From assembly GCF_011044175.1 (NCBI RefSeq), contig NZ_CP049057.1, positions 1,503,501-1,567,500 on the forward strand: a DNA stretch of 64,000 nucleotides, written 5' to 3'. The DNA comes from Rasiella rasia. GTDB taxonomy: Bacteria > Bacteroidota > Bacteroidia > Flavobacteriales > Flavobacteriaceae. Within the stretch, counting starts at the first letter, position 1. Every line of letters starts with the position of its first letter. Below, one piece after another: positions 12,084 through 58,449 of the stretch. The translations under genes and the position numbers were made by a program. The notes beneath the pieces were generated by a model. The model searched no databases, was not told where the DNA came from, and saw only the letters and a program-made list of their open reading frames with translations.

Positions 12084-12544
12084 AACTTTATAACAAGCAC
12101 AGAAAAGTTGAACTAATTATAGACGACGAATTAATTGATAAAATTAGTAAGTCAGGAGTGGAACATTTTCCTAAGGAGTTTGGTGGTTTTTTAGTAGGGA
12201 AATACTCAGATGATTTCAGCAGTTTATCTATAACCGATTATATTCTCCCCAAAAGCTATAAGGGAGGCAGATATTTATTTGAAAGAAGTTCTAAAGGAAT
12301 GAAGTCTTTTTTTTCTAAATTATTCAAAAAGAAAAAAGAATATTATGTTGGTGAATGGCACACCCACCCAAATGGAAGTACTAGATTTAGCGACACCGAT
12401 TTAAACGCAATGATTAACATTGAATCATCCCCAAGTGTTAATATTAGAAATCCTGTTTTACTCATTTTGAGTGTTTCAGATAAGCAACTTAACCAAGCAA
12501 CCTTTTATATTTACGATAACAAAAAATTAATTCCGTATGAGTGA
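12080..12544 (+). CDS. cap3: CBASS Cap3, JAMM-family isopeptidase
   Basis: This 154-residue metalloprotease has the JAMM/MPN motif intact: Glu33 in KEFGGFLVG, then His93 and His95 in EWHTHPNGS, and Ser104 and Asp107 in FSDTDL. Cap3 enzymes remove the CD-NTase from its conjugates and so oppose Cap2. The start is a TTG overlapping the cap2 stop codon; no ATG is available nearby without losing conserved sequence. A lysine-rich insertion (SKLFKKKKE) precedes the catalytic motif. The 3' end overlaps the next gene by 8 bases. Confidence 0.9.
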   Translation: MKLYNKHRKVELIIDDELIDKISKSGVEHFPKEFGGFLVGKYSDDFSSLSITDYILPKSYKGGRYLFERSSKGMKSFFSKLFKKKKEYYVGEWHTHPNGSTRFSDTDLNAMINIESSPSVNIRNPVLLILSVSDKQLNQATFYIYDNKKLIPYE

Positions 12545-13367
12545 TAAAATTTTACTAAGAGAACTTTTTTCTGGTTTGCAGAGTCAAATGATTGCACAAT
12601 TGAGTACAAACCGAAACAATATAAAACACTCTACATCTAAAGGTGATGCGCTCGAAAATGCTTGGATTGAATGGTTAAAGAAATATTTACCAAATAGGTA
12701 TAGCGTTGATAAAGGCATAGTAATAGATTCAACGGGGGAAACAAGTGACCAAATTGATATTATCATTTATGATAATTGGTTTACTCCTTTTATATTTTCA
12801 CAAAATGGATTTCATTATATACCTGCTGAAGGAGTTTATGCAGTTTTTGAGTGTAAACCCGATATTTCTGGAAGTTCAGATGGTATTACTAACATTGAAT
12901 ATACAGGAAAAAAAATTGAAAGTGTTAGGAAACTAAAAAGAACTACAACACATATCATAAGTGTAGGAGAAAGAGTTGAACCTCGTGGATTAACTAAAAT
13001 AGTAGGTGGAATCTTGACCTCAACGAAATCGGGAGATAAAACTAATAATAAGACTTTAGAAAAACATTTAGTAGCCCAAACAGGTTTAAAAAGTATAGAT
13101 TGCGGCTGCATAGCTGATTATGGTGCTTTCTTTATAGATTATGAGAATAAAGAAGACAAAAGCATTAAAGACTTTGATAAACGATATTTTGAGTACTATA
13201 AAAAAAGAGTATTCAATAAGGTAGAGTTCAGTAAACAAGAAAATTCATTAGTTACATTCTTTATGCAATTAACCAGATACTTACAACAAGCAATAGGTAC
13301 TGTGCCCGCAATTAATTTACAGACCTATTTAGACAGTATTAACGAGAAAATTGATAAGGAAATTTAG
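12537..13367 (+). CDS. PD-(D/E)XK nuclease-like protein (DUF6602-like), probable CBASS effector
   Basis: This 276-residue cytosolic protein occupies the effector position of the type II CBASS operon and overlaps cap3 by 8 bases. A PD-(D/E)XK-type active site can be traced: Glu40 in KGDALENAW, Asp74 in DQIDIIIYDN, and Glu105-x-Lys107 in YAVFECKPD. The fold and order resemble DUF6602 proteins. No SAVED, TIR, patatin or transmembrane effector domain is seen. The C-terminal 120 residues, ending in a long helix, could hold the signal-binding or oligomerisation part. It would degrade nucleic acid when the cyclic nucleotide appears, which is inference. A nuclease of restriction type is the alternative. 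Confidence 0.75.
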   Translation: MSDKILLRELFSGLQSQMIAQLSTNRNNIKHSTSKGDALENAWIEWLKKYLPNRYSVDKGIVIDSTGETSDQIDIIIYDNWFTPFIFSQNGFHYIPAEGVYAVFECKPDISGSSDGITNIEYTGKKIESVRKLKRTTTHIISVGERVEPRGLTKIVGGILTSTKSGDKTNNKTLEKHLVAQTGLKSIDCGCIADYGAFFIDYENKEDKSIKDFDKRYFEYYKKRVFNKVEFSKQENSLVTFFMQLTRYLQQAIGTVPAINLQTYLDSINEKIDKEI

Positions 13368-13528: not shown

Positions 13529-13536
13529 CTTCTTCG

Positions 13537-13586
13537 TAGCGGGAACAGGACTCGAACCTGTGTCCGCCGCGGCGGATATGAGCCCA
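13537..13586 (-). other. tRNA-Met-like 3' half, copy 1 (mimic)
   Basis: On the minus strand this reads an anticodon loop CTCATAT, then a 14-base GC palindrome (TCCGCCGCGGCGGA, 13563-13576), then a perfect T-arm (ACAGG-TTCGAGT-CCTGT) and the 3' acceptor strand. The D-arm and 5' acceptor strand are absent, so it is not a functional tRNA. The palindrome replaces the 3' anticodon stem and variable loop found in the copy at 14587. Confidence 0.85.
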
Positions 13587-13590
13587 ACCA

Positions 13591-13845
13591 CTAATTAAAA
13601 CGTACGTTTTTGACAATCCACTCTCTCCCAACACCAGATTTTAAAAATTTCTCAAATAGCATAGCTTCACGCTTCAATTCAAAATTTCTAACAAAAACAA
13701 CTCTCCAAGGACGATATTTAATGGTCCATCCCTTTTTACTTAACAAATTATGCGATTGAAAACGAGAAATAAGATTACTGGTATAACCAATGTATGACTT
13801 GGAATAGGAATCAGACCATAAAATATAAACTACAAACGATTCCAT
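13591..13845 (-). CDS. Small GIY-YIG nuclease, copy 1
   Basis: This 84-residue protein is a stand-alone GIY-YIG endonuclease domain of the UPF0213/YhbQ type: VYILWSD and SYIGYTSNL form the GIY-YIG strands, followed by the conserved Arg (SRFQSHN) and Glu (AMLFEKFLKSG). There is no separate DNA-binding domain. It is one of three copies with identical proteins in a 350-bp tandem array. The ATG lies directly after the T-run of a hairpin, leaving no room for a ribosome-binding site, so translation may be weak or specially controlled. Its stop codon lies about 5 bases from a tRNA-like 3' half. Confidence 0.9.
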   Translation of the reverse strand: MESFVVYILWSDSYSKSYIGYTSNLISRFQSHNLLSKKGWTIKYRPWRVVFVRNFELKREAMLFEKFLKSGVGREWIVKNVRFN

Positions 13846-13850
13846 AAAAA

Positions 13851-13878
13851 AACTCCCCTTAAGAGATTAAGGGGAGTT
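13851..13878 (-). terminator. Hairpin abutting GIY-YIG start codon, copy 1
   Basis: AACTCCCCTTAA and TTAAGGGGAGTT form a 12-bp perfect stem with loop GAGA (TCTC on the minus strand). On the minus strand seven T residues follow and lead straight into the ATG of the GIY-YIG gene. It looks like the intrinsic terminator of a tRNA transcript. Confidence 0.85.
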
Positions 13879-13886
13879 CTATTTAG

Positions 13887-13936
13887 TAGCGGGAACAGGA
13901 CTCGAACCTGTGTCCGCCGCGGCGGATATGAGCCCA
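13887..13936 (-). other. tRNA-Met-like 3' half, copy 2 (mimic)
   Basis: Same structure as the copy at 13537: T-arm and 3' acceptor strand intact, 14-base GC palindrome in place of the 3' anticodon stem and variable loop, no 5' half. Confidence 0.85.
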
Positions 13937-13940
13937 ACCA

Positions 13941-14195
13941 CTAATTAAAACGTACGTTTTTGACAATCCACTCTCTCCCAACACCAGATTTTAAAAATTT
14001 CTCAAATAGCATAGCTTCACGCTTCAATTCAAAATTTCTAACAAAAACAACTCTCCAAGGACGATATTTAATGGTCCATCCCTTTTTACTTAACAAATTA
14101 TGCGATTGAAAACGAGAAATAAGATTACTGGTATAACCAATGTATGACTTGGAGTAGGAATCAGACCATAAAATATAAACTACAAACGATTCCAT
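13941..14195 (-). CDS. Small GIY-YIG nuclease, copy 2
   Basis: Encodes an 84-residue protein identical to copy 1. The only visible coding difference is a synonymous A/G change shared with copy 3, so copies 2 and 3 are closer to each other than to copy 1. The hairpin and tRNA-like flanks are the same. Confidence 0.9.
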   Translation of the reverse strand: MESFVVYILWSDSYSKSYIGYTSNLISRFQSHNLLSKKGWTIKYRPWRVVFVRNFELKREAMLFEKFLKSGVGREWIVKNVRFN

Positions 14196-14200
14196 AAAAA

Positions 14201-14228
14201 AACTCCCCTTAAGAGATTAAGGGGAGTT
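14201..14228 (-). terminator. Hairpin abutting GIY-YIG start codon, copy 2
   Basis: Same 12-bp stem with a four-base loop and T-run leading into the ATG as in copy 1. Confidence 0.85.
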
Positions 14229-14236
14229 TTATTTAG

Positions 14237-14286
14237 TAGCGGGAACAGGACTCGAACCTGTGTCCGCCGCGGCGGATATGAGCCCA
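14237..14286 (-). other. tRNA-Met-like 3' half, copy 3 (mimic)
   Basis: Same structure as copies 1 and 2, including the 14-base palindrome between the anticodon loop and the T-arm. Confidence 0.85.
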
Positions 14287-14290
14287 ACCA

Positions 14291-14545
14291 CTAATTAAAA
14301 CGTACGTTTTTGACAATCCACTCTCTCCCAACACCAGATTTTAAAAATTTCTCAAATAGCATAGCTTCACGCTTCAATTCAAAATTTCTAACAAAAACAA
14401 CTCTCCAAGGACGATATTTAATGGTCCATCCCTTTTTACTTAACAAATTATGCGATTGAAAACGAGAAATAAGATTACTGGTATAACCAATGTATGACTT
14501 GGAGTAGGAATCAGACCATAAAATATAAACTACAAACGATTCCAT
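14291..14545 (-). CDS. Small GIY-YIG nuclease, copy 3
   Basis: Encodes the same 84-residue GIY-YIG protein as copies 1 and 2. It is the copy nearest the attachment site: the hairpin upstream of its ATG separates it from the cleaner tRNA-Met 3' half at 14587. Read on the minus strand, the original arrangement was therefore tRNA-Met, terminator hairpin, GIY-YIG gene. Confidence 0.9.
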   Translation of the reverse strand: MESFVVYILWSDSYSKSYIGYTSNLISRFQSHNLLSKKGWTIKYRPWRVVFVRNFELKREAMLFEKFLKSGVGREWIVKNVRFN

Positions 14546-14550
14546 AAAAA

Positions 14551-14578
14551 AACTCCCCTTAAGAGATTAAGGGGAGTT
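14551..14578 (-). terminator. Hairpin abutting GIY-YIG start codon, copy 3; terminator of tRNA-Met
   Basis: The 12-bp stem lies 8 bases downstream (minus strand) of the tRNA-Met 3' end at 14587, the normal place for a tRNA terminator, and its T-run ends at the GIY-YIG ATG. Confidence 0.85.
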
Positions 14579-14586
14579 CTACTTAG

Positions 14587-14628
14587 TAGCGGGAACAGGA
14601 CTCGAACCTGTGACCTTCGGGTTATGAG
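14587..14628 (-). other. attL: 3' half of tRNA-Met(CAU) at the left ICE boundary
   Basis: On the minus strand these 42 bases read exactly as tRNA positions 32-73: loop CTCATAA with anticodon CAT, 3' anticodon stem, variable loop AGGTC, T-arm ACAGG-TTCGAGT-CCTGT, acceptor strand TCCCGCT and discriminator A. Identity to a tRNA stops at the anticodon loop, where tyrosine integrases usually cross over, and an integrase gene starts 160 bases further on. The intact tRNA should lie at the other end of the element, outside the window. Confidence 0.85.
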
Positions 14629-14790: not shown

Positions 14791-15996
14791 ATGGCAACAA
14801 TTAGAGTGGTTTTAAGAAAAAAGAAAAATAAAGCCGGAAGGTTTCCTATTGCTATTCGCATAACTAAAGACCGTAAAAGTTCTTACTTAAATACAGGTCA
14901 ATATATAGATGAAAAATTTTGGGACGAGAAAAACCGCAATGTTAGGAAGTCGCACCCTAATTCAAAGATGCTGAATAATTTTATTTCAACCAAGGTTGCA
15001 GAAGCCAACGATAAGGTTTTAAAATCTGAAATGAATCCAGAGTATCAAACCGTATCGGATATAAAAACTAAAATTATTGCTACAAAGGGACTTGATTTTT
15101 TTGCCGTAGCTGAAATGCACCTTCAAAACTTAAAAAACAGAAATAAACATCATCAGTATGACACTGAAATTGGGCGAATAAAAAAGTTCAAGGAATTTCT
15201 TGATAAAGATATTCTTCCGTTCAACAAGCTGAATTCAACAGTTCTTAAAAAGTTTGAAACTTTCCTGCTTCACAAGAAAAAACTTGCGCCCAGAACAGTC
15301 GTGAATTATTTAATCCTTATTAGAACGATATTCAATCTTGCAATTTCTGAATCAATTGCAGATAGAGGATTATATCCATTTGGAAAAGGTAAAATGACAA
15401 TCAAAATCCCAGAGGCTCAAAAAATAGGATTTAGCACTGATGAAATACAAAAGTTAGAGAATGCAGAGAGTTTAACTGAAGCTCAACAGAAAGCCGTTCA
15501 CGTATGGCTTGTCAGTTTTTACTTTGCAGGAATACGCGTTGGCGATGTCTTAAAATTAAAGTGGTCAGATTTTAATGATGGGCGCCTACTCTACCGGATG
15601 AACAAAAACAGTAAACTAGTTTCTCTCAAAATCCCTGATAAAGCTATCGAGATTTTCAATCATTACCGGAAAAACTCAAATTATAATGGTCTCGTATTCC
15701 CTCAGTTGAAAGGTGTAAATCTTAATGACACCGAAGAAGTGTCTAAAAGAACCCAATCCATTACCCGCAATTTGAACAGACGATTAAAAATTGCAGGAAA
15801 AAGCCTCGGAATACAAAAAAACATAAGTATGCATATTGCTCGGCATAGCTTCGGAAATATTTCTGGGGATAAAATACCAATTCAAATGCTGCAAAAATTA
15901 TATCGTCATTCTTCCGTTACAACTACTATTCGCTATCAAGCAAATTTCATCCACAAAGATGCAGATGACGCTTTAGATAGTGTGGTGAATTTTTGA
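14791..15996 (+). CDS. int: Tyrosine integrase of the ICE
   Basis: This 401-residue recombinase inserts and excises the element at the tRNA-Met 3' end. The order is an N-terminal arm-binding domain typical of Bacteroidetes integrases (MATIRVVLRKKKNKAGRFP), a SAM-like core-binding domain (about 105-200) and a catalytic domain with the first Arg in AGIRVGDVL (about 249), HIARHSFGN (HxxR, about 347) and the active Tyr in TTTIRYQ (about 381). All catalytic residues are present. It starts 162 bases from attL, the usual place for a tRNA-targeting integrase, and converges with the following gene with 19 bases between their ends. Confidence 0.95.
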   Translation: MATIRVVLRKKKNKAGRFPIAIRITKDRKSSYLNTGQYIDEKFWDEKNRNVRKSHPNSKMLNNFISTKVAEANDKVLKSEMNPEYQTVSDIKTKIIATKGLDFFAVAEMHLQNLKNRNKHHQYDTEIGRIKKFKEFLDKDILPFNKLNSTVLKKFETFLLHKKKLAPRTVVNYLILIRTIFNLAISESIADRGLYPFGKGKMTIKIPEAQKIGFSTDEIQKLENAESLTEAQQKAVHVWLVSFYFAGIRVGDVLKLKWSDFNDGRLLYRMNKNSKLVSLKIPDKAIEIFNHYRKNSNYNGLVFPQLKGVNLNDTEEVSKRTQSITRNLNRRLKIAGKSLGIQKNISMHIARHSFGNISGDKIPIQMLQKLYRHSSVTTTIRYQANFIHKDADDALDSVVNF

Positions 15997-16015: not shown

Positions 16016-17698
16016 TTATTCTGGTAGCACATCCCTAAATTTATCTACAAGTAAATTCATTGAGAACTGGTATTCGTCTAACCTAAAACTGATGGGTGAT
16101 AGCTGTTTGAACATTCCTTTTTTGGCTTGTGTAATACCTTCTTCAAGATTTGGATTATTAATGACTACACGGGTTTTCATTGCTTTGTGATGTCGGTCTA
16201 GTAAATCTCTAAAATTCCTATCCTTTTCTTTAAGATACGGTGCCCAGAAAATAAGAGTATCAATATCTACAAATGTTAGTGGTTTAATTAAACTAGGATT
16301 ATACATATTACCCAATCGTTCTTGCACTAATTCGTTATATCTCTTGTTTAGAAGATAGTTCATCCCTGGAATTTCAAAAACCCTATCGCTTACTAAGAGT
16401 ATTGGATAAATAGATAAGTTGTTTTTTTGATTGGCATAATCATCATAAGCGAACGTTTTGTTAATTATCTGCTGAATCGAGGTAATTAACTGACCGATAC
16501 CAACGTGACGGTCGCCATCGTGAACAAATTTTTTATCCAGTAGTTTTTTTATCTTCTCAATATCAGAAGAACTCTTAATATCTGCCCTTACAAGAATGTC
16601 CTTGTTTTCAAATAGGTAAATCTTATTATTGTGACGAACATAATAGTCGGGTTCGTTATCGCGTGTGGCCGTCTCTTGTCGCTTTACCATATATTTCCAA
16701 TGGAATATCTCATCGAGGACTTTCTTCATAACAACTTCTTCTGAAAAGTCGCTATTGTAAAACGCAAAAAAGGAACTATCATCTGGCTCTAGACCGTGAT
16801 GAGCGATAAAAGCATCTTTCAAGATAAACCTAACGCTTTTGAAAAATTTATCTAGCAAATAAAAATAGTCTACAAGCGAGAATTGTGTTTCATCTATTTT
16901 ATAAAGTGGAAATTTTTTGAGGTTTGTAAAGTCATCCGAAACATCTATTTCTGCCTTTGTTAAAGTATTCAAGAAATTAATATGGTCTTCTCTGTCGGGT
17001 GTTAAAATGTAGCTATTAAGGTGTTTCATTCGCAACAGAGTTGCCACCAACAATTTTACTTGATAATTAAGCTGCTCTAGATTTTCTTGATTGAATTCTT
17101 TTGCTAATGCTTCGCCCAGATATTGGTTTTCGTCTTCAGAAACAAAGTCAAGCAAAAATTCAAATTTTATTACCGTGGCATAAAGTAGTTTAGCAAACTC
17201 AAGGTCATTATCTTCAAAAAGGCCTGTATCTGCTGAAGAAAAAGACATTGCAATGAGCATCTCTGCCATACGGTCTATATTATCCTGAGCATCGCCAAGA
17301 TTTTGTTTTTTGTTGGCCTGAAGATTTATTAAAAGATAAGTTTTGAACAAGTTTATTTCATCTTCATCAATACCTTCATTTTCATTACCTTCTAACAAAC
17401 TATCCCTGTTAGCAAGGATAATCTCGCTTAGCATTAAACTGCTTTCTCGTGATATAAGAATAGGTCTTTCTGGTATTTGATAGGCCTTGCCATAATCAGC
17501 TACTCTTTTATTTATTTCGTGTTGCTTCTCTACATTACTAAAAATCCTGTTATAATTAGGTTGATTTTTGGTCGTGCTAAAACCAATAATTTTAAGAAGC
17601 GTCTCACGCGAGATATTTGAAAGATATTCGAGAATTTCTTTTGGCTCTTCCTCTGGAAATACGTTAGCAAACTCTAGTCTTTGTACAGCTTTAATCAT
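16016..17698 (-). CDS. Unknown protein with PD-(D/E)XK-like nuclease motif
   Basis: I do not recognise the family of this 560-residue cytosolic protein. The first 340 residues are helix-rich with no known motif. A candidate nuclease core follows: Asp351 in NEPDYYVRHN, then Glu364-x-Lys366 in IYLFENKD, with an earlier Glu330 in KVLDEIFHW; this order and spacing fit a PD-(D/E)XK active site. The last 190 residues are charged and helical. The gene reads opposite to the integrase and divergently from the 1344-residue protein, with 216 bases between them that may hold both promoters. It could be the nuclease of a defence module in the ICE, which is inference. Confidence 0.6.
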   Translation of the reverse strand: MIKAVQRLEFANVFPEEEPKEILEYLSNISRETLLKIIGFSTTKNQPNYNRIFSNVEKQHEINKRVADYGKAYQIPERPILISRESSLMLSEIILANRDSLLEGNENEGIDEDEINLFKTYLLINLQANKKQNLGDAQDNIDRMAEMLIAMSFSSADTGLFEDNDLEFAKLLYATVIKFEFLLDFVSEDENQYLGEALAKEFNQENLEQLNYQVKLLVATLLRMKHLNSYILTPDREDHINFLNTLTKAEIDVSDDFTNLKKFPLYKIDETQFSLVDYFYLLDKFFKSVRFILKDAFIAHHGLEPDDSSFFAFYNSDFSEEVVMKKVLDEIFHWKYMVKRQETATRDNEPDYYVRHNNKIYLFENKDILVRADIKSSSDIEKIKKLLDKKFVHDGDRHVGIGQLITSIQQIINKTFAYDDYANQKNNLSIYPILLVSDRVFEIPGMNYLLNKRYNELVQERLGNMYNPSLIKPLTFVDIDTLIFWAPYLKEKDRNFRDLLDRHHKAMKTRVVINNPNLEEGITQAKKGMFKQLSPISFRLDEYQFSMNLLVDKFRDVLPE

Positions 17699-17914
17699 AT
17701 TGGTGAGTTATAACTAGTACAATGTAATAAAATTTAAAAATCACTCGAGATTTTTATGTTCATTTTTTACCAAAAACCACAAAGAATTAAACTGTGCGAA
17801 ACAGAAAACTCAGTATAGTTAATTAATTGGCTATTTTCTAATTTTCGGATATACTCACTCGTTCATTCTACAATAGTAATATCTTTATAGACTTGAATAA
17901 AAAAATAATTGTTA

Positions 17915-20900
17915 ATGAGACATCAAGTAAACGAAAAAGTTAAGAATCTCAATGTATTACTTAAACACTACAAAAAGCCTCAATATATTCACAAGAACAA
18001 CAAAACTGAAGATGCCGAAAAACTCTGGAACGCATCTCTGTTTTTTGCAAATATTCTATTAGCAAGTGATTACTCGGGACCTGATGTTTCCGATAAAGAA
18101 CTAAAGGATTTTACAACCAATTACGAGGCACAAAATAAAGAAACGATTGACATAGAAGAGTTGCTTTCAAAATTTTGGCTTCGTAATATCTTTGGAAATA
18201 TTTACATCCCTGATATAATAAGGCAAACTGCCAGAGATTATGAAAAGAAAAAAGATAGGTACAACGAATTACTTTTTATAAAGCATTTAAAAGCTGATTT
18301 AGGAATTGATGAAACTTCATCAAAAGAACTTAAAAAAATTATTAAGTCTTATGAATCTATACAAAAACTTAGTCTAAACAGCGATTGGCTTTTCGAAGCA
18401 CACTTCATAAAAGAGAACAAAGATGGCTCTGCTTTTAAAGTTAGTAGTGTTGACTATTATACCAAGCTACTTGATTATTGGACAACTTTCAAGTTCATCA
18501 ATGAAGTCCTAAAGTACAAGCAGAAAAAGTATGAAGCAAGTATAGGTGTAACCAAAGTCAGCTTTGATAAGATATATAAAAGACACAAGTCACTCTTTCC
18601 CAAAACACCTGATATTGAAGAGTTATTAGATGACAAAGTTTTAGAAGAAAAATCCGAGGTCTATAATATCTCTATCCGCTCAGGAAACCCAAATTACATC
18701 TTTGATTTAGCTGGCAAAATCAAAGCCACTATTTGGCAAAGACTTCTAGATGACAATTCTTTCGAAAATGACACCCTAAGAGTTTCAAAATTTCTATCCT
18801 ATTCTAAATTTGATGACCATAGACACGACATTGCCCTGCATCTTTCTGAGGACGCGAAAGAGCGATTCCGAGAATCTGCATTGACAATGGTTTTAAACCA
18901 ACCAGACCTGCTATCTATTGACCAAGAATTTAACAAGGTGTTTTTAGAGGATAATATTTCCTCTCGAAATTATTGGAATAGTGATTATATAAATAAGAGT
19001 GATGATTTAATACTAACGGAAGACTTGTATGACCTCTATGACAAAATGCTCAGTGTTTCCGATAACTATAATGGTAACCTCTTTTTTATGCAGGATTGTA
19101 GAGCAGACATATCCTATTTAGTTGATGAACTACTTATATTAGATAATGAATATCCTAAACACAACAAAGCAGATAACTTTAAATATTCTCATTATCCACT
19201 TACAAAAATATTATTGTCAGAAGGTCTTACAAAACCTTACTTACTATGGGAATCCGCCTATTTTTTAAAACACAGAGGCCTCACTCGATTGCCTTTTTTA
19301 CTTATTGAAGAAAATTTTGAAACATTGACATTCAGATTGCTTGATAATGCTTCGATTGAGGTTTTGCCTGATGAAACTGTATCGCAAGTAAGAACAAAAA
19401 TGTTGAAAATCGCAATTCAGCTGATTTTTGACGAAATCACTTCTTCCCATAATTATGATAGGGATAATTTTGCGAACGTAGTTTTTCAATTATTCAAGGA
19501 AATTAATAGGGATAAATTTATACTGGTACGAAATTCAAGAACTATCGAGATTTATGAACAGACCGTCGCCGATAAAAAAGATAGGGAAAACATCTTATTG
19601 AACACTATCGAGAATTATTCTGTAGATATAAATAGTTTCCCCAAAAAAGCCAGTCCGTCAGTTATTTCAAAACACCTATCATTACTTTTAGAACGTGTCC
19701 ATTCCTATTTGCCTGCAAGAGAACTATCAAACGGTAGTTGGCACCTACCATTGCATAAGCTTGATTACTTAAGTTGGTTATCAAAAATTACAATAAACTG
19801 TCAGTTAAAAAAGGAAAAGCTTGAGGCTAACATAGAGAAAGAAATTGAAAAGGTTTACTTTGACACCTACCGGTCTGCAATCGAGAAAACTTCAATTACT
19901 AAAACAGTTTACCCTAATCTTAGTACAAAAACAGATATACCTTCTTGGTATCTAGATAACGAGCATTTAGATAATATTGATTGGATTTTCCCATTTATTC
20001 TATTGCAACGAAGCAACACATTTTCAAAATTATTAAGCCCAACGATTGCTTTTAACTCAGATGAAGACATTTATGATGACCTGAACAAATATTCCGTAAA
20101 GCGTCTGCGTTCACATTTATTTATACTGTTATCCACCCTAGACTTCATAAATAGCCGAAATTCAAATCTTATCAGGCTACAAAAAGAAACTACTAACATC
20201 AAGAAAAAGCTAGAAGCCGAAATAGTAGATATTCTAAAAGAAAATGCTGTTCAGCACAATAAGAACAAGATTGATATTCTTGATGAGTTTTTTGAAAGAA
20301 GTTATAATAGCTCAAACAAAAATGAATTAATACCGCAAATAGCCAATAGCATAAATTGGTTTACAGATAAAAAAGGGATTCTAAAAGCTCTAACTAAAAC
20401 GAGTGATTTGATACGTCTTTTAATTATTGTGGATTGGATTACTGCCGAGGGCTTAAAGAAAGTATTAATCAAAAAAATTAAGAAATCAAAAATTACTGAG
20501 TTCATAAAATCCCGTAGGTTTAATCCAGAAATGGAATTGCTGATTACAAAGCTCACATATCAACGAAAGCTACTAAAACAAACAAAAGAAGCTCTCGACT
20601 ACTGGAAAAAAAATGTAACTTCTCACGGCAAAAAAGATTTTGAAAAAGTAGCATACCTCGTTGATTTAATGGTTGCTTATAATGGCAAAGATGAAAAAGC
20701 CCTCGATGCCATAAAAACACCCGAGCATAAATCTTATAAGATTCATAAAGAATTTGGAATTGAAAACTACAAACAGTTCTATCGTGGCCTAATCCGTTTC
20801 AGTACAAATCCTGAATCTGCATATCAAATATTTGATAGTTTACACCATCAGTTTCCTCAACATTCATCCATTGCTTTAAATCGTTTAGCAGCTAAAGTAA

Positions 20901-21949
20901 ATTGGGCATCAAAAACAGAATCTAATACACTATTTGAAGAAGCTCTTGATGAATGGGAACAAATGGAACCGTGTTTGCCAGAAACCTATTTAGACAATGT
21001 TAAAGATAGCGTTTGGACCAATAAACTTACCGCTTACTATCATATAAACGATAAAACTGAATTCGACAAACTTTACTTATCCATTCCTTTTCCATACCAA
21101 ATGAAAGAGGATATGGTAGAATTGAAAATAGGAATGTTATTGAAGAATCAACTACGGGAAGATGCAAAGAAAATATTATTTAAAGCCACTAATTACCACA
21201 AAGACTCTGCTGGAAGAGTCCCAAAATTCATCAGAAAGCTTAAGAGCAAGCTTGATGACGAAACCGATATAAAGTTACTTCAAAATAATTTTAATGAAAT
21301 TTTTGCATCCCAGCCTAAAACACTAATTCAAATATTTCCTGATAGATTAAATACAGAAAACAGTTTGGGAAGTTTTATTGCCAAAGAAGTTACACTTGCC
21401 AGTAGCAAAATGCTAGATAAAATGAATGCGATTAGAGAGGTTGGACACGAAGATAAATATAATGATTTAGTTCAACTTGCTCTTGATGCTAGAGTAGCTC
21501 AATGGGGTTGGCAGGTCAAAGACCAAGCACGAGGTGGTTTTTCTGGTAATCAGAAAAAATACAATCCAGGCGAAAGAGATATAATTATCTTTGATGGTAA
21601 TGGCGAACCACTAATCGTTTGCGAAGCATTTATCTGGACAGACAAACGAAAGGCTCAAAGTCACATCACAAAGGTTTTTAATTATCATCATAATCGTACA
21701 AATTTCATAATGTTGGTTTATGATAAGAGACAGTACAAAAACTTTGATTCTAACTGGAAAAAGTACAAAGAAGATGTCTTACCAAATTTATGCTATCCGT
21801 CAGGTTTCGGTCTAAAAAAATCGAAATTGAAAGAGTTAACAAATAAATTTGGTTATAAATCATCCGCCATTAAAGTAGGTTCGTCTAATCACGGAAAAAA
21901 CACAAAGATTTTCCATATAATGGTCAATATCAATTATAGGGTAAATTAG
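17915..21949 (+). CDS. Very large helical protein, unknown function
   Basis: This 1344-residue protein is not one I recognise. The ATG at 17915 is preferred to a TTG two codons upstream. It is almost entirely charged, helix-rich sequence that may form alpha-solenoid repeats, with no P-loop, signal peptide or membrane segment. The C-terminal 190 residues differ: they contain ERDIIIFDGNGEPLIVCEAF and a following helix with HITKVFNYHHNR, the pattern of a restriction-nuclease-like fold, but the expected lysine after the Glu is missing. The N-terminal part could be a sensor or scaffold. It precedes the helicase-nuclease gene by 197 bases, with a terminator-like hairpin between them. Confidence 0.65.
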   Translation: MRHQVNEKVKNLNVLLKHYKKPQYIHKNNKTEDAEKLWNASLFFANILLASDYSGPDVSDKELKDFTTNYEAQNKETIDIEELLSKFWLRNIFGNIYIPDIIRQTARDYEKKKDRYNELLFIKHLKADLGIDETSSKELKKIIKSYESIQKLSLNSDWLFEAHFIKENKDGSAFKVSSVDYYTKLLDYWTTFKFINEVLKYKQKKYEASIGVTKVSFDKIYKRHKSLFPKTPDIEELLDDKVLEEKSEVYNISIRSGNPNYIFDLAGKIKATIWQRLLDDNSFENDTLRVSKFLSYSKFDDHRHDIALHLSEDAKERFRESALTMVLNQPDLLSIDQEFNKVFLEDNISSRNYWNSDYINKSDDLILTEDLYDLYDKMLSVSDNYNGNLFFMQDCRADISYLVDELLILDNEYPKHNKADNFKYSHYPLTKILLSEGLTKPYLLWESAYFLKHRGLTRLPFLLIEENFETLTFRLLDNASIEVLPDETVSQVRTKMLKIAIQLIFDEITSSHNYDRDNFANVVFQLFKEINRDKFILVRNSRTIEIYEQTVADKKDRENILLNTIENYSVDINSFPKKASPSVISKHLSLLLERVHSYLPARELSNGSWHLPLHKLDYLSWLSKITINCQLKKEKLEANIEKEIEKVYFDTYRSAIEKTSITKTVYPNLSTKTDIPSWYLDNEHLDNIDWIFPFILLQRSNTFSKLLSPTIAFNSDEDIYDDLNKYSVKRLRSHLFILLSTLDFINSRNSNLIRLQKETTNIKKKLEAEIVDILKENAVQHNKNKIDILDEFFERSYNSSNKNELIPQIANSINWFTDKKGILKALTKTSDLIRLLIIVDWITAEGLKKVLIKKIKKSKITEFIKSRRFNPEMELLITKLTYQRKLLKQTKEALDYWKKNVTSHGKKDFEKVAYLVDLMVAYNGKDEKALDAIKTPEHKSYKIHKEFGIENYKQFYRGLIRFSTNPESAYQIFDSLHHQFPQHSSIALNRLAAKVNWASKTESNTLFEEALDEWEQMEPCLPETYLDNVKDSVWTNKLTAYYHINDKTEFDKLYLSIPFPYQMKEDMVELKIGMLLKNQLREDAKKILFKATNYHKDSAGRVPKFIRKLKSKLDDETDIKLLQNNFNEIFASQPKTLIQIFPDRLNTENSLGSFIAKEVTLASSKMLDKMNAIREVGHEDKYNDLVQLALDARVAQWGWQVKDQARGGFSGNQKKYNPGERDIIIFDGNGEPLIVCEAFIWTDKRKAQSHITKVFNYHHNRTNFIMLVYDKRQYKNFDSNWKKYKEDVLPNLCYPSGFGLKKSKLKELTNKFGYKSSAIKVGSSNHGKNTKIFHIMVNINYRVN

Positions 21950-22088
21950 AGCAAAGCATATTAAAAAACTGTCTGGCCTTAAGATATGTTAATCCTTTTG
22001 CCACTTTTTATGGTCAAATACATTCAAAATTTATTATAATTGTTAAACGAATTCAAATAAAGTAAAACTTTTTTCTGGTAATAATCCT

Positions 22089-22110
22089 GGCTTCGTAGGA
22101 AGCCTTTTTT
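22089..22110 (+). terminator. Intrinsic terminator or attenuator before the helicase gene
   Basis: GGCTTC-GTAG-GAAGCC followed by six T residues is a textbook terminator. It lies 37 bases upstream of the helicase ATG, so it either ends the 1344-residue gene's transcript or acts as a leader attenuator for the helicase. Confidence 0.75.
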
Positions 22111-22146
22111 ATGCCGTGAATTCAAAGAATAAACACCTATAAATCT

Positions 22147-25100
22147 ATGATCGAAATTTTAAAAAACCATTGCAATGCAGAAAACGGTTTGCTTTTGTTT
22201 GACCCACCTACCGGTTCAGGTAAAACGTATAACGTTTTAAAATGGATTTTTGAAAATTATAAGACACATTGTAAAGAAGGGCGCAAAATTTTCTTCATTA
22301 CTAACTTGAAGAAAAACCTTCCTCTAGATGATTTAAGGAACGACCATTTTGCGAAAAACAACAAAGTCGACGATTTTAATAAACACGTCCTTTTTCTTGA
22401 CTCTAATATGGGTTTCGTATTGAAAAATTTTGACGAAATCAAAGATAATATTCCTGAATATTTCGGTAAACTACAGGCCTTTAGAAGCCTACGGAATCAA
22501 GTGCGCTTGGTCAACAATTTAAAATCTTCAAACAAATTCAAGGATGTTTTAAGTGCTGCTGAAAATGAACTTAGAAACAAATATGAGCCTGAATTTAGAA
22601 GAAGAATAGAGCTGTATTTAAAAGAAAATTATCCGAATAAAAAAGAACGTTTAAAGGCCATAAAAACTGAGCCCAATTTAAAGTGGGTTGGCACATTGTA
22701 TCCATCGGTTTTTTCTTCTGTACGTAAGATTTTCTTTTTGAGCATAAGTAAATTTTATGCTCAAAACAGCACCCTTGTAGAACCTTCTTACCACTTTATT
22801 AACCACGATATTACTAAAGATGCCATCATTTTTATAGACGAAATTGACGCTACGAAAGATAGCATACTATCTAACATTATTGATAAAGGAAAACGCCAGC
22901 GTATAGATTACATTCATTTGTTCAATGAAATCTATTGGGCACTTTCAAACAATACACTTCCTGTAGATTTTTTGGTACATTCAAAAAATAGACAACAGCA
23001 AATTGATAATGGCTACAACTACAAAGATTTAAAAGACATTGAAAATGTTCTAAAGTCGATGGCTGCTGAAATTGTAGAGAAATACAATGTAATGTATAGT
23101 TTCAAGACAACAATGGCACCCAATGTTTCAAGAGAACGCAACCTATTGTTTCACGACTTTCAATACCACGCGGTCTACCGCAACAATTATAAATACATTG
23201 AAATTGATACTGATTATGGAAAGCGAATGAACCTATTGCAGTTTACTAATGAGAAACCTGTAGATAACTCATTAAACATCATAACATTGCTCAATCAAAT
23301 AAAGGGCTATGTTAGGTATTTTCAGGGTGCGGTAAAGAGTTTGGCACAAAATTACCAAGAAACCATTAATGAGCGCCGTATCGCATCCACATCACAAGAA
23401 TCTGAATATGCTTATGATTTAGCGTTAAGCACCGTACTTGAAGAATTTAGGCTGGAAGGCAAGTACAAAGCATTTATTATGGACAGCATTCTTTCTGAAA
23501 GAGAAAATGCAAATCAATCTGACAAAAACAAACCGCAAATACGTTATGATTTTAGTGTATATGAAAACGGCTTTAGATACTTCGACTTTATTGACGATGA
23601 GCAGCACGAAACAATTACCAAAACATTTATCTATGATTTTAATAGTACCCCAGAGAAGTTTTTGTTAAAACTTGCTGAAAGGGCTAAAGTTATAGGTATT
23701 TCTGCCACTGCCAATATTGAAACCGTAACAGGTAATTATGACATAAGTTATTTAAAGAAACAATTGGGCTCTTCCTTCTTTGAACTCAATAGTGATGAAA
23801 AAGAACATCTTAAAAGTTTTATTGAAAAACAGAACGAAAATTACAAGGACGTAACCATACATCCTATCTGGATAAAAAATTACAGTACCGAAGCCGAAGT
23901 AGCAGAAGGTTTTTTAAAATTGATTGAAGACAAAGAATTGGTGCGTCATATTATAGGTAAAATAGATAATCCAAACCCATTTATTCAAAATAGATACCTG
24001 CGAATTGCTCAGGCATTTGATAAGTTCCTCTTATATCAGGATATCAAGGCAATGCTTTGTTTGTTGAACAAAGAGCCTAAAAAATGGGATGATAAACTAC
24101 GTATTTCTACACTCGAAGAGATTTTTGAAATTCTTATTGAAAAATACAATACCCAAGAGATCTTCACTCAGAAAGATGATGACAGCGATGAATTGGTGTA
24201 CAGCGTTAAAAATTCGTACAGAATTATTAATAGTGCAGATTTCGATTTGAAAAAAGAAGATTTTACAGATCGATTGCATCGTGGTCAAAAGCTATTTTTA
24301 ATATCAATGTACCAAACAGTAGGTGCTGGTCAAAACCTTCAGTATGTTTCGCCCGACATCACAGAACTTGTTGATGTGCGCAGTAGTGAACTTCCAAAAT
24401 ATAATCTTGATAAAACCGACATCAACGCTATTTATCTGGATAAACCCACGCACCTTATTCAGCTTATAAATAAGCAACTTGATGAAGAAGGCTTTATCAG
24501 GTATCTATTTCAGTTGGAATTTTTACTGGAAGCTGGTAGAATTTCAATGGCAACGCTAAAAAGTGAGGTTACCAGAGGATTTGAAAACTTGATGGCATCA
24601 CTTAATTCTAACGGGATTCCCAAACGTAGTAAGGCTTCACTTTACGATGACTACAATATAAAACAGCATTATTCAAAATTTATAATCCAAGCTATTGGGC
24701 GGATTTGCCGCACAAACCTAAAAGCAAAGAATATCTACATCTTGGCTGATGATGAACTACAAAATCATATTGCATCCTTTGATATTGAAAACAATGTAGT
24801 TCTTAAAGAATTTAAAGCCTTGGTCTCTTCTTGTCGAAAGCATACAAAGGAAATAGAATCTGACGAAGTTTTTGTGAATAAAGCCATAATGGCCAATAGA
24901 AAAACCCTATCCAGAATATTGCGTTTTATCCGCAGAGATTGGGAATGGCGTGATAAAGATATTAAGGAATGGCAGCAGTTGAGAGAACTCTGTCTCATCT
25001 ATCCAACAATGACCAAGGAATGTTCAAAAAACTTGATTAGAGTTCTGGATGTCTATGTAGAATTACCATCAATGGGTAACAGTTACAGTTATGAAGAAGA

Positions 25101-25674
25101 AAACGATTTTCAATCCATCACAATTGATTTCAATAACAAATTGCCAGCAAAGGTTTCCGAAACATCAGCGCGATTACAGTCTATGCTATCCATCCCAGGT
25201 TTAAAACAACATTTTGAAGGAAAGCAATACGCTACACAATTCAACAATGGATCTTTTATATTGAGCCCTGTCTTATTTCATAATATATACAAAGGCGCTT
25301 TGGGTGAGGAAGCCGGACGTTTCATCTTTGAGAACGAACTACATATTCCGCTTGAAGAAATTCCAAAAGAACACTTTGAATTGTTTGATTTCAGGATTAA
25401 AGAAACAGATATCTATGTAGATTTTAAGCATTGGCAGGAATACACCGAGTTTGATGCTACAAAAATTCAAGATAAAATATTAAGCAAATTAACTAAAGTA
25501 AACGGGTCAAAAGCGCTAATCGTAAACGTGCTTGCCGTAAATAATTACAGAACCATTACCAGGATAGATGGTAAGATTGTAGAAATAGGAAATTTATATG
25601 ACGAAGAGAACAAAAGTTACAACACTCAAGCTATCAAGAAAATTTTAGAAGTCTATGGAAAAAGTAAAGATTAA
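22147..25674 (+). CDS. SF2 helicase fused to a C-terminal PD-(D/E)XK-like nuclease
   Basis: This 1175-residue protein has the motifs of an SF2 helicase: Walker A PTGSGKTYN (residues 21-29), Walker B IIFIDEIDAT (about 235), motif III-like GISATANIE (about 517) and motif VI QAIGRICRTN (about 847). A long insertion separates the two RecA-like halves. The C-terminal 150 residues look like a nuclease: GEEAGRFIFE, ELFDFRI, then YVDFKHW (Asp-x-Lys near 1091) and a Gln-containing helix, in PD-(D/E)XK order. It should translocate on and cut nucleic acid. Its 3' end overlaps the next gene by 20 bases, so those two are translationally linked. The family is not one I can name. Confidence 0.8.
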   Translation: MIEILKNHCNAENGLLLFDPPTGSGKTYNVLKWIFENYKTHCKEGRKIFFITNLKKNLPLDDLRNDHFAKNNKVDDFNKHVLFLDSNMGFVLKNFDEIKDNIPEYFGKLQAFRSLRNQVRLVNNLKSSNKFKDVLSAAENELRNKYEPEFRRRIELYLKENYPNKKERLKAIKTEPNLKWVGTLYPSVFSSVRKIFFLSISKFYAQNSTLVEPSYHFINHDITKDAIIFIDEIDATKDSILSNIIDKGKRQRIDYIHLFNEIYWALSNNTLPVDFLVHSKNRQQQIDNGYNYKDLKDIENVLKSMAAEIVEKYNVMYSFKTTMAPNVSRERNLLFHDFQYHAVYRNNYKYIEIDTDYGKRMNLLQFTNEKPVDNSLNIITLLNQIKGYVRYFQGAVKSLAQNYQETINERRIASTSQESEYAYDLALSTVLEEFRLEGKYKAFIMDSILSERENANQSDKNKPQIRYDFSVYENGFRYFDFIDDEQHETITKTFIYDFNSTPEKFLLKLAERAKVIGISATANIETVTGNYDISYLKKQLGSSFFELNSDEKEHLKSFIEKQNENYKDVTIHPIWIKNYSTEAEVAEGFLKLIEDKELVRHIIGKIDNPNPFIQNRYLRIAQAFDKFLLYQDIKAMLCLLNKEPKKWDDKLRISTLEEIFEILIEKYNTQEIFTQKDDDSDELVYSVKNSYRIINSADFDLKKEDFTDRLHRGQKLFLISMYQTVGAGQNLQYVSPDITELVDVRSSELPKYNLDKTDINAIYLDKPTHLIQLINKQLDEEGFIRYLFQLEFLLEAGRISMATLKSEVTRGFENLMASLNSNGIPKRSKASLYDDYNIKQHYSKFIIQAIGRICRTNLKAKNIYILADDELQNHIASFDIENNVVLKEFKALVSSCRKHTKEIESDEVFVNKAIMANRKTLSRILRFIRRDWEWRDKDIKEWQQLRELCLIYPTMTKECSKNLIRVLDVYVELPSMGNSYSYEEENDFQSITIDFNNKLPAKVSETSARLQSMLSIPGLKQHFEGKQYATQFNNGSFILSPVLFHNIYKGALGEEAGRFIFENELHIPLEEIPKEHFELFDFRIKETDIYVDFKHWQEYTEFDATKIQDKILSKLTKVNGSKALIVNVLAVNNYRTITRIDGKIVEIGNLYDEENKSYNTQAIKKILEVYGKSKD

Positions 25675-27667
25675 CATTGTAAATCCAAAGCTAAACTATC
25701 ACAATATTGACAACGAGTTCAGTATTGTTCGGTTTACCACGTCCGAAAATTATATTCCATTTGGGGCACAATTTATAGACGCCTTCTCACAAAATATTAA
25801 GGCCAAAAGTGTGGTTTTTGAAAATGGCCGTTCTCTTTACACGCTATTTACGAAAGCGGAATTAGAAAAAATCAATCTTAGAGCCGAAATTGATAAAATT
25901 GAAGGTGCAGAGGTCTTGACCTTTTCGGTATTAAAAAACAGAGAAATCCAGCAGATCCCAATACATCTATTAGTTCAATTACTAATAAATTCTTTGAGCT
26001 CGCCAGAGAACCATCGCCTTCGGTTCAACAATTTAACGGGTAAATTATTTCTTTATAATGAATCGCTTTTTGAGCGTAGAAAGTTTAAAGATGATAGACT
26101 GATAACTAAAATTCCTGCGATTGAATTTAAAGTTCATAGTGATTTGAACTTAGAATTGCGCATTACAACTTTTACAAGCCTTTTATTAAAAACAAAACTT
26201 GATTTTTCCAGAAAGTCTTTGCATAAATACGCTAAATATACCTACTCGCACGCCACCAAATCAATGCGCAGAATTATAGATGGTGAGAACTTTGATGCCA
26301 AAGATGTTTTTATAATCAAGCAAGAGCCCAGAAAGAAGACAGTCATTCCATTCTTGGATTTTAATGAATTGGATTCCTTTCAGGAAAGTAAAATGGGTTT
26401 TATGGCCGAAACCCTTGAAAAAGTTGAAGATAAACTAAATGTGTGTTTACAATTAGCCTTCAAGGAAGCGTCTGTCAAAAATACCTTTAGAACTGCTGAC
26501 CAAAACCAACAGGATATCAATTCCATAATATCACAGACCAAAAAAACCGTACATATCATAAATGCAGTAGGCGAAACGGCAGAAGATTATATTGAAGTTT
26601 TTCAGGATACATTAAAGACAGTTTTACCCACAACTAAAACAACAATCTCTGGTAATCATAAAAAGCAGGCCTTGAATATTCGCTTGGTGCACAACAAGCA
26701 CTACTACGACAAGAACGGAATACAAGATAAGTACGATTCATCACTAATAAATACACAACACCTCACGATAGAAGATTTTAAATATAATAATACGAGTGCT
26801 GTAAAGGCAGTTTTAAAAGAGCTGTTAATTAAGAATGATATAGTGAAAAAGCAAGTCTCTATTATAGATTGGCCTCAATACAATTTTACCAATGATTTTG
26901 TGTTCGGCATCAAAGATTATGAGCAGTTCATATTTCTAAAAATAACACCATCTGGAAAGATGCAGTTTGAAGTTAAAGAACAAACATTATTCAACCAGTC
27001 TGAATTTGATGACTTAATTTCAATTTTTGAAGAAGATTCAACTGTTGAAGGTGTTGTTAAAAATCATTTAGGACACATCAACGTTATTAAAAGGACGGGC
27101 TTGTACACAATTCCAAATTTCAAAGAAATTTATGGTCAACTCAAAGCCGAAAATAAAAACGAAAACTTCAAAATATCTGATGTAAAGCGATGGCTTTCAG
27201 ACACTGATATTGAAGAAAAGCATAAAAAACATTACCAGACAATTTTTAATAATTGGGACGAAGAATTCATTTCAAAATCAAACCTTTTAAAGATAATTGA
27301 CCATCGTTCGGTAAAGAAAAAACTATCAAAACACGTTTTCGAAAAAACAGGTATCGTAGTCAAATCCTATATGCGAGATAAGACAAAATATGATTTAATG
27401 GACAGTAATCTTGATATTCACTCATATTCTGAAAACGGCAAGTTGTTCTATTATGTTGGAACCATAGGTGATGGGATGCGAACAAAAATTGGTCGTGCAT
27501 CGAAAATTCGTGAGATATCAGGATTTTCAGACGCGCCTATTTTTTTTGATGAGATGTTACCCTTAATGAATGTGGATTTTGTGAGATACGGTGATTTAAC
27601 AGTAATTCCATTTCCTTTCAAATATCTAAGAGAATGGGCTCGGATATCTCATAAGGAACAAATCTAA
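25655..27667 (+). CDS. Unknown 670-residue protein coupled to the helicase-nuclease
   Basis: I do not recognise this protein. It starts 20 bases inside the 3' end of the helicase gene, strong evidence that the two act together. The first half is strand-rich (GKLFLYNES, LELRITTFTS). The middle holds an ALNIRLVHNKHYYDKNG segment leading to TQHLTIEDF, and later strands (FVFGIKDYEQFIFLKI) alternate with helices. The C-terminal third has a distinct VGTIGDGMRTKIGRAS stretch. The arrangement of strands and helices raises the possibility of a PIWI- or RNase H-like fold, but I cannot place catalytic residues, so this is only a suggestion. No membrane segment or signal peptide. Confidence 0.65.
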   Translation: MEKVKINIVNPKLNYHNIDNEFSIVRFTTSENYIPFGAQFIDAFSQNIKAKSVVFENGRSLYTLFTKAELEKINLRAEIDKIEGAEVLTFSVLKNREIQQIPIHLLVQLLINSLSSPENHRLRFNNLTGKLFLYNESLFERRKFKDDRLITKIPAIEFKVHSDLNLELRITTFTSLLLKTKLDFSRKSLHKYAKYTYSHATKSMRRIIDGENFDAKDVFIIKQEPRKKTVIPFLDFNELDSFQESKMGFMAETLEKVEDKLNVCLQLAFKEASVKNTFRTADQNQQDINSIISQTKKTVHIINAVGETAEDYIEVFQDTLKTVLPTTKTTISGNHKKQALNIRLVHNKHYYDKNGIQDKYDSSLINTQHLTIEDFKYNNTSAVKAVLKELLIKNDIVKKQVSIIDWPQYNFTNDFVFGIKDYEQFIFLKITPSGKMQFEVKEQTLFNQSEFDDLISIFEEDSTVEGVVKNHLGHINVIKRTGLYTIPNFKEIYGQLKAENKNENFKISDVKRWLSDTDIEEKHKKHYQTIFNNWDEEFISKSNLLKIIDHRSVKKKLSKHVFEKTGIVVKSYMRDKTKYDLMDSNLDIHSYSENGKLFYYVGTIGDGMRTKIGRASKIREISGFSDAPIFFDEMLPLMNVDFVRYGDLTVIPFPFKYLREWARISHKEQI

Positions 27668-27694
27668 CGAAGAGCCCAAAAGAATTAATATAAT

Positions 27695-28405
27695 TTGGAA
27701 AAAAAAGGCACTTGCAGAATATGCGGTAAATTTGGCAAACTAACGTTCGAGCACGTTCCGCCTCAGAGTGCGTTCAACACTTACCCCGTATTTTTTCAGA
27801 AATCAGTACATCTTCACGACAAGAATAGTCCCTTGTATGGAAAGCGTATTCGTAGTAATCAGGGTGCTGGCGACTATTATCTTTGCAAATCTTGCAACAA
27901 CTTAACGGGCAGTTACTACGGCGAAAGCTATAAGAAGTTTGCATATATGGGAATGATGGCCCTGACAAATCGAGTTTGGGCATCAAAGGTTATAACTTTT
28001 GAATACGCCATTCAACCTCTCAACATACTAAAGCAAGTCTTGTCTATGTTTATGTCGATTGATACAAGTGACCAACTTCTAAATTTAGAAGGGCTATCAA
28101 AATTTCTATTGGATAAAGATTCCCAGGCACTTCCAGAAAATATAAGGGTTTTTGTCTATCATACTGCTACAAAGCAAGTAAGAAATGGTTGGGGAATGGC
28201 AAGAACGGAAAAAGGATTTCACATTCTTGGCGAGATTACCTATCCGCCATTTGGTTTAGTTTATGCCTTAAATTCTGAACCGACCCGCAATGATTTTTTT
28301 GAAATTACTGATTTTAAAAATTATGTTTTCAATCAAACTGTTCAGGCGAGTTTGACCATTCCTTTTTTGACACCTAAAACATATATTCCTGGTCTTTACA
28401 CATAA
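27695..28405 (+). CDS. HNH-type zinc-binding endonuclease-like protein
   Basis: This 236-residue protein has an N-terminal HNH-like core: CRICGKFGKLTFEHVPP (a CxxC pair, then Glu-His) and a second CxxC pair in LCKSCNNLTG, with the Asn expected after it. The rest (about 80-236) is an unassigned domain. The start is a TTG at 27695, 27 bases after the previous gene; no ATG allows the first CxxC. It is probably the last gene of the helicase block and would supply a second nuclease activity. Similar HNH proteins also occur alone, so membership in the system is inferred from position. Confidence 0.75.
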   Translation: MEKKGTCRICGKFGKLTFEHVPPQSAFNTYPVFFQKSVHLHDKNSPLYGKRIRSNQGAGDYYLCKSCNNLTGSYYGESYKKFAYMGMMALTNRVWASKVITFEYAIQPLNILKQVLSMFMSIDTSDQLLNLEGLSKFLLDKDSQALPENIRVFVYHTATKQVRNGWGMARTEKGFHILGEITYPPFGLVYALNSEPTRNDFFEITDFKNYVFNQTVQASLTIPFLTPKTYIPGLYT

Positions 28406-58447: not shown

Positions 58448-58449
58448 AT

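What the first reader, a model, noticed from the sequence alone, without database searches (positions are those of the whole stretch)
16016..28405. Five-gene block of unfamiliar nucleases and a helicase at the ICE left end: candidate new defence system
Next to the integrase lie a PD-(D/E)XK-like protein, a 1344-residue helical protein, a helicase-nuclease fusion, an unknown 670-residue protein that overlaps it, and an HNH protein. Cargo next to the integrase is a usual place for defence genes, and none of the large proteins matches a system I can name. The helicase-670 overlap and the HNH gene right after it mark these three as the core.
Basis: partly seen in the sequence, partly recalled or inferred. 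Interest (0 to 1): 0.8.

Follow-up and report, generated by a model that had tools for sequence, protein, structure and literature searches.

The report
DdmDE plasmid-defence genes in a mobile element
[quoted passage not shown] the other three are separate defence-type neighbours, two of which matched no named family here.

Summary
The five genes are real. The core pair is a known system, not a new one. The helicase-nuclease (22147-25674) is DdmD: PADLOC E 1.5e-53, solved DdmD E 2.6e-62. The 670-aa protein (25655-27667) is DdmE: profile E 2.4e-35, and its predicted fold matches Lactobacillus casei and Vibrio cholerae DdmE (Foldseek 5.3e-32, 2.7e-25; VIA Z 17-20 against 10.9 for the best other Argonaute). 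In 12 of 12 other genomes examined DdmE follows DdmD; in 0 of 12 is the HNH, 560-aa or 1346-aa gene in the DNA held. The HNH gene matches in 13 other family genomes of 397, none with full-length DdmD. A clean cargo swap between 93%-identical flanks shows Hachiman plus HNH in one element and DdmDE without HNH in another: HNH is not needed with DdmDE but can travel with a defence operon. The 560-aa protein has a conserved PD...ExK motif and lay near defence genes in 6 of 6 loci examined, without a control; the 1346-aa protein lay beside a 560-like gene in one other genome and a Jet-like operon in another. Both are candidate new defence genes, unproven. Likely function of the core: DNA-guided plasmid elimination.

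The parts
22147..25674 (+). ddmD: SF2 helicase with C-terminal PD-(D/E)XK nuclease, 1175 aa
   Evidence: PADLOC DdmD 1.5e-53 over 193-1166; solved DdmD 9ix4 2.6e-62 over 10-1160; Walker A PPTGSGKT, FIDE and nuclease FDF...DFK align with solved DdmD
25655..27667 (+). ddmE: Argonaute-like protein, 670 aa; overlaps ddmD by 20 bp
   Evidence: phmmer to DdmE 9iw3 1.8e-8; profile of 4 sequences 2.4e-35; model pTM 0.70, Foldseek to 9iw3 5.3e-32, VIA Z 20
27695..28405 (+). HNH-type gene, 236 aa, 27 bp after ddmE: neighbour, not a conserved DdmDE component
   Evidence: 0 of 12 other DdmDE genomes have it in the DNA held; 14 of 397 family genomes match, only the window's own with full-length DdmD
17909..21949 (+). 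1346-aa protein with a C-terminal nuclease-like segment (GERD...CEAF; reading inferred); candidate separate defence gene
   Evidence: no match in PADLOC, Pfam, NCBIfam or PDB, weak PHROG of unknown function 0.0087; full-length 38% homologues L069 and L075 beside Jet-like and Septu/restriction genes
16016..17698 (-). 560-aa protein with conserved PD...ExK motif; candidate stand-alone defence nuclease
   Evidence: motif shared with 4 homologues; 7 of 199 family genomes, own included; defence genes nearby in 6 of 6 loci examined, window included, no control
22089..22104 (+). terminator-like hairpin with T run between the 1346-aa gene and ddmD
   Evidence: weak, as 6 such sites were found in the region scanned and 6.5 expected by chance
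14791..15996 (+). tyrosine integrase beside the cargo
   Evidence: Pfam Phage_integrase 1.4e-15

Best explanation
ddmD and ddmE at 22147-27667 are a Bacteroidota DdmDE system carried as cargo of a conjugative element. DdmE, an Argonaute-fold protein, would load a short DNA guide and pair with plasmid DNA, then recruit DdmD, which loads on the displaced strand, moves along it with its helicase and cuts with its C-terminal nuclease, so the plasmid is lost. Shown here: identity of both proteins, fold of DdmE, helicase and nuclease motifs, overlapping genes, conservation as a pair. Inferred from published work on DdmDE: guide use, recruitment, plasmid loss. The HNH, 560-aa and 1346-aa genes are separate cargo; HNH may be a portable add-on that is not needed for DdmDE.
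For:: matches to DdmD and DdmE profiles and solved chains; the DdmE model (pTM 0.70) matches solved DdmE far better than any other Argonaute listed; motifs align with solved DdmD. DdmE follows DdmD in 12 of 12 other genomes; spacing -23 to +1 bp in the 9 other pairs measured. DdmD and DdmE identities correlate (r 0.97, 45 pairs from 10 loci), as expected of genes inherited together, though any two vertically inherited genes would also correlate; flanks 93% identical over 4241 and about 1524 bp enclose HamA-HamB-HNH in L036 and DdmD-DdmE in Nonlabens dokdonensis (L052, L062). Mechanism: passages of PMC12409362.
Against: No activity was tested. Identity to solved DdmE is 16-18% in structure, and parts of the model (such as 176-219 and 574-585) are under pLDDT 50. 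In 2 of 12 other genomes (L058, L059) ddmE reads as split pieces. HNH starts 27 bp after ddmE, and in L036 it lies inside the swapped cargo with Hachiman, not in the flank, so it can travel with a defence operon; a role in this one locus is not excluded.
Confidence: 0.9

Rival explanations
1. In this locus ddmD, ddmE and HNH act as a three-gene variant in which HNH adds a nuclease to the work of DdmD.
For: 27 bp gap on the same strand. The same HNH family follows other defence operons: 4-bp overlap with hamB in L036, 10 bp behind a 1493-aa Mrr-AAA protein in L037. In L036 HNH lies inside the cargo that DdmDE replaces in N. dokdonensis, so it moves with operons.
Against: 0 of 12 other DdmDE genomes have HNH in the DNA held: 7.9-9.0 kb downstream in 11, 1.5 kb in N. 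dokdonensis. 13 other family genomes of 397 have HNH matches without full-length DdmD. Distant relatives stand among other genes in L064-L067 and on four plasmids viewed of ten hit.
Confidence: 0.12
2. All five genes are one new defence system.
For: Adjacent, between integrase and efflux genes.
Against: The 560-aa and 1346-aa genes are divergent, and 197 bp separate the latter from ddmD. Neither is found with DdmDE in 12 other genomes within the DNA held. Six other genomes with a 560-like gene gave no 1346-like match.
Confidence: 0.02
3. The 560-aa and 1346-aa genes are a separate two-gene defence module beside DdmDE.
For: Adjacent in the window; in L075 a 560-like gene (29%) is followed 20 bp later by a 1346-like gene (38%) on the same strand, behind Septu and restriction-modification genes. 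G696 holds remnants of the one and a 35% relative of the other, on different contigs.
Against: Opposite strands in the window. In L069 the 1346-like gene overlaps a JetD-like gene by 4 bp, and that genome (G175) has no 560-like match. Six of six genomes tested with a 560-like gene gave no 1346-like match.
Confidence: 0.2
4. The pair is an ApsAB system rather than DdmDE.
For: ApsA and DdmD form one broad family (PMC11096173, passages).
Against: The 670-aa partner matches DdmE by sequence and fold; that paper reports no sequence similarity between ApsB and DdmE and different predicted structures. ApsB was not compared directly here.
Confidence: 0.03

Closest known systems
DdmDE of Lactobacillus casei (9iw3, 9ixm, 9ix4) and Vibrio cholerae (8u3k, 9ezy, 9bgk)
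   Same: Two-gene pair, protein sizes, helicase and nuclease motifs in DdmD, Argonaute fold of DdmE
   Different: Low sequence identity (DdmE 16-18% in structure); on a Bacteroidota conjugative element; an HNH gene follows here
ApsAB antiplasmid system of Escherichia coli
   Same: Helicase-nuclease plus Argonaute-like partner; ApsA and DdmD in one broad family (PMC11096173, passages)
   Different: The partner here matches DdmE, which that paper reports as unlike ApsB
Hachiman (HamAB)
   Same: A 62% relative of the window's HNH gene follows hamB in L036
   Different: Different helicase, no HamA match in the window block
Jet (Wadjet)-like operon in L069
   Same: A 38% homologue of the 1346-aa protein lies at its end
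   Different: No Jet genes beside the 1346-aa gene in the window; the JetC and JetD matches there are weak (3.7e-10, 6.1e-5)

Membership tests
DdmDE | DdmD with SF2 helicase motifs | tested here: met
   Match to solved DdmD over 10-1160, Walker A and B aligned
DdmDE | C-terminal PD-(D/E)XK nuclease in DdmD | tested here: met
   FDF...DFKHW aligned with FDF...DFKNW of L. casei and FDN...DSKYW of V. cholerae; D1081, D1092, K1094 invariant in 5 sequences
DdmDE | Adjacent DdmE with Argonaute fold | tested here: met
   Profile 2.4e-35; Foldseek 5.3e-32; VIA Z 17-20
DdmDE | PIWI domain without catalytic tetrad | tested here: inconclusive
   Few acidic residues of the C-terminal half are invariant in A2 and A4, but tetrad positions were not mapped on the structure
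DdmDE | Short DNA guides, recruitment of DdmD, plasmid loss | not testable with these tools
   Needs biochemistry and plasmid assays
DdmDE | Conserved as a two-gene unit | tested here: met
   12 of 12 other genomes; HNH, 560-aa and 1346-aa genes in 0 of 12 within the DNA held
ApsAB | ApsB partner with MID-like motif | not tested
   No ApsB sequence was compared; the partner matches DdmE
Hachiman | HamA beside HamB helicase | tested here: not met
   No HamA or HamB match among the five block proteins at E up to 1

The most novel reading that the evidence does not exclude
The 560-aa protein is the type of an undescribed PD-(D/E)XK defence nuclease family of Bacteroidota; the 1346-aa protein, with a C-terminal nuclease-like domain, is an undescribed effector that joins different defence operons (beside a 560-like gene in L075 and in the window, behind a Jet-like operon in L069); and HNH is a second portable add-on, seen behind DdmDE, Hachiman and an Mrr-AAA protein and exchanged together with Hachiman in a clean cargo swap.
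Probability: 0.35. Interest if true: 0.5.

Novelty: new member of a known kind. Interest (0 to 1): 0.32.

Why it matters
Solved DdmDE structures come from Vibrio cholerae and Lactobacillus casei. Here the pair appears in Flavobacteriaceae, Saprospiraceae, Prolixibacteraceae, a Bacteroidales genome, a Clostridiales genome and a Nostoc plasmid, and the window's copy lies on a conjugative element. An element that carries an antiplasmid system could keep competing plasmids out of its host, which can be tested directly. The cargo position shared by L036 and Nonlabens dokdonensis, where Hachiman plus HNH and DdmDE replace each other between 93%-identical flanks, is a place to look for further defence genes.

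Tried and rejected
Five-gene system: rejected on comparative data. HNH as conserved core: rejected, kept as a locus-specific rival. I lowered confidence from 0.92 to 0.90 and raised the three-gene rival from 0.10 to 0.12 for that.

Structure of the 560-aa protein from one sequence gave pLDDT 33 and was not used. A weak NCBIfam hit of the 560-aa protein over its motif (capSnatchArena, E 0.093, below cut-off) was not counted. Searches without a relative: PDB for the 560-aa and 1346-aa proteins, viral contigs for DdmD, the 560-aa protein and HNH, plasmids for the 1346-aa protein, phages for DdmE. The first genome-contig scan found nothing, the second gave 12 loci; each used two short patterns, so the number of DdmDE loci is a lower bound. 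The phylum sample gave three weak DdmE pieces besides the window (4 of 395).

Rows dropped: G044, a 95-residue weak DdmD match. L057, L059 and L061 are the contigs of G394, G055 and G170 and were counted once; L052 and L062 are two scaffolds of one genome, counted once. Of the 13 other HNH genomes, G350 is broken and G338 a 29-residue piece. That saw the same 397 genomes is inferred from their equal number and from the handle numbers. Neighbours of the 560-like genes were picked by eye for the PADLOC scan, with no control loci; L049 and L078 were not examined. The empty answer carries the tool's warning, though the same query does match. ORF lists were made for L031, L034, L036 and L037 of the seven loci; the other three were checked by tblastn alone.

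Papers: passages only of PMC12409362, PMC11096173, PMC12904381; the last swaps the names DdmD and DdmE in one sentence. No held paper has 'DdmDE' with 'Bacteroidota' or 'Flavobacteri'; one has it with 'Bacteroidetes' (listing only). This does not show that Bacteroidota DdmDE is unpublished; the tree in PMC11096173 gives taxonomy that I did not see.

Full report
Observation. The five genes exist as described, with small corrections: the second protein is 1346 aa from a TTG codon, and HNH also starts with TTG. The integrase is a tyrosine recombinase, and conjugation-type genes lie further right.

Helicase. PADLOC gives one family, DdmD, E 1.5e-53. Pfam gives two helicase families below cut-off, NCBIfam none. 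phmmer against solved chains gives L. casei DdmD at 2.6e-62 over residues 10-1160 and V. cholerae DdmD at 1e-49. The nuclease motif (FDF...DFKHW) and the helicase motifs align with solved DdmD, and D1081, D1092 and K1094 are invariant in five sequences.

The 670-aa protein. No family library names it. Among solved chains it finds only DdmE (4 distinct sequences at E up to 10, best 1.8e-8); a profile of four homologues raises this to 2.4e-35. An AlphaFold2 model from ten sequences has mean pLDDT 74.4 and pTM 0.70. Foldseek ranks six DdmE chains first (5.3e-32 to 1.1e-18), then Piwi and Argonaute chains at 1.3e-7 to 1.1e-5. VIA-align gives DdmE Z 17.3-20.4 and the best other Argonaute 10.9. It is DdmE.

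Who else has the pair. Of 397 family genomes, 5 match DdmD: the window's own, three full-length (52-54%), and one weak 95-residue piece that I dropped. A plasmid of Nostoc has the pair. A scan of one genome per species found 12 loci in 11 genomes, three of them the same as those above. That makes 12 genomes besides the window. DdmE follows DdmD in all 12; in two it reads as split pieces. The spacing was -23 to +1 bp in the nine other pairs measured, and identities of DdmD and DdmE correlate at r 0.97 over 45 pairs. No HNH, 560-aa or 1346-aa homologue appears in any of the 12 at E up to 1e-3; the DNA held reaches 7.9-9.0 kb downstream in 11 and 1.5 kb in Nonlabens dokdonensis.

The HNH gene. 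It matches in 14 of 397 family genomes, own included; two of the matches are fragments. Only the window's own also has full-length DdmD. At 83-84% identity it occurs in L031-L035, in all five with a 139-aa gene and an RND efflux gene on one side and in four with an integrase on the other (L033 is a short contig). In L031 and L034 a pair of 300/303 and 258 aa precedes it. In L036 (62%) it overlaps Hachiman hamB by 4 bp, in L037 (47%) it lies 10 bp behind a 1493-aa Mrr-AAA protein. L068 and L070 keep remnants.

A cargo swap. L036 and the two N. dokdonensis scaffolds share 93.4% identical DNA over 4241 bp on one side and 93.2% over 1524 bp on the other. Between these flanks lie HamA, HamB and HNH in L036, and DdmD and DdmE in N. 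dokdonensis, whose DdmDE is the closest to the window's (58-68%). That the two scaffolds meet is inferred from DdmD running off both. So HNH moved with Hachiman, and DdmDE sits there without it. This speaks against HNH as a DdmDE part, and for HNH as a gene that can travel with a defence operon. Distant relatives (26-34%) stand among other genes in four genomes and on four plasmids viewed of ten hit.

The 560-aa protein. No library match reaches its cut-off and no solved chain matches. It and four homologues share PD...ExK. It matches in 7 of 199 family genomes, own included, and on 8 Hymenobacter plasmids. Six loci were examined for neighbours, and all six hold known or predicted defence genes within about 10 kb: Zac-like genes in L045 (weak matches), DRT8 and type I restriction in L047, Ppl in L048, a PDC-S06 ATPase in L046, Septu with restriction-modification in L075, DdmDE in the window. 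No control loci were scanned.

The 1346-aa protein. No match except a weak PHROG of unknown function. Full-length homologues (38%) were found in one other of 249 family genomes and one other of 128 genomes of an order sample; two further matches are fragments. In L069 it overlaps a JetD-like gene by 4 bp, at the end of a Jet-like operon behind Gabija. In L075 it follows a 560-like gene by 20 bp. Of four genomes with a 1346-like match, two have a 560-like gene, one of them adjacent. The C-terminal GERD...CEAF segment is conserved between the window and L069 and may be a PD-(D/E)XK core without the usual lysine; that is inference.

Mechanism. Passages of PMC12409362 describe DdmE as a catalytically inactive Argonaute that uses DNA guides to find plasmids and recruits DdmD, whose autoinhibited dimer opens, loads on the non-target strand, translocates and cleaves. 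The motifs needed for this are present here; nothing was tested. Passages of PMC11096173 link DdmD to ApsA of ApsAB.

Verdict. A new member of a known kind, with three separate neighbours. The most useful leftovers are the 560-aa and 1346-aa families and the travelling HNH gene.

Noticed in passing
9468-13367: Type II CBASS gene set left of the integrase: cyclase, E1-E2, JAB and a NucC-type nuclease.
   Followed up: partly
56522-60258: Gabija GajA (3.1e-282) and GajB (1.9e-104) beside the conjugation-type genes.
   Followed up: partly
13536-14612: Tandem array, period 350 bp, 3.1 copies, 99% matches; three copies of an 84-aa GIY-YIG gene and a stretch that looks to me like a tRNA 3' end (ARAGORN finds no tRNA). 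True array or assembly artefact not settled.
   Followed up: partly
L034 8298-9989 and L031 9894-11576: A 300/303-aa plus 258-aa gene pair between integrase and HNH; the L034 copies have no PADLOC or Pfam match at E 0.01. Candidate undescribed cargo.
   Followed up: no
L036 9431-14033 against L052 4241 and L062 2699: Clean exchange of HamA-HamB-HNH for DdmD-DdmE between flanks 93% identical.
   Followed up: partly
L069 3229-9427: Divergent Jet-like operon (JetC 3.7e-10, JetD 6.1e-5) behind Gabija, ending with a homologue of the 1346-aa protein.
   Followed up: partly
L058 13533-15513 and L059 6966-8941: ddmE reads as split pieces in Nonlabens tegetincola and an Algibacter MAG, while ddmD is one open frame.
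   Followed up: no
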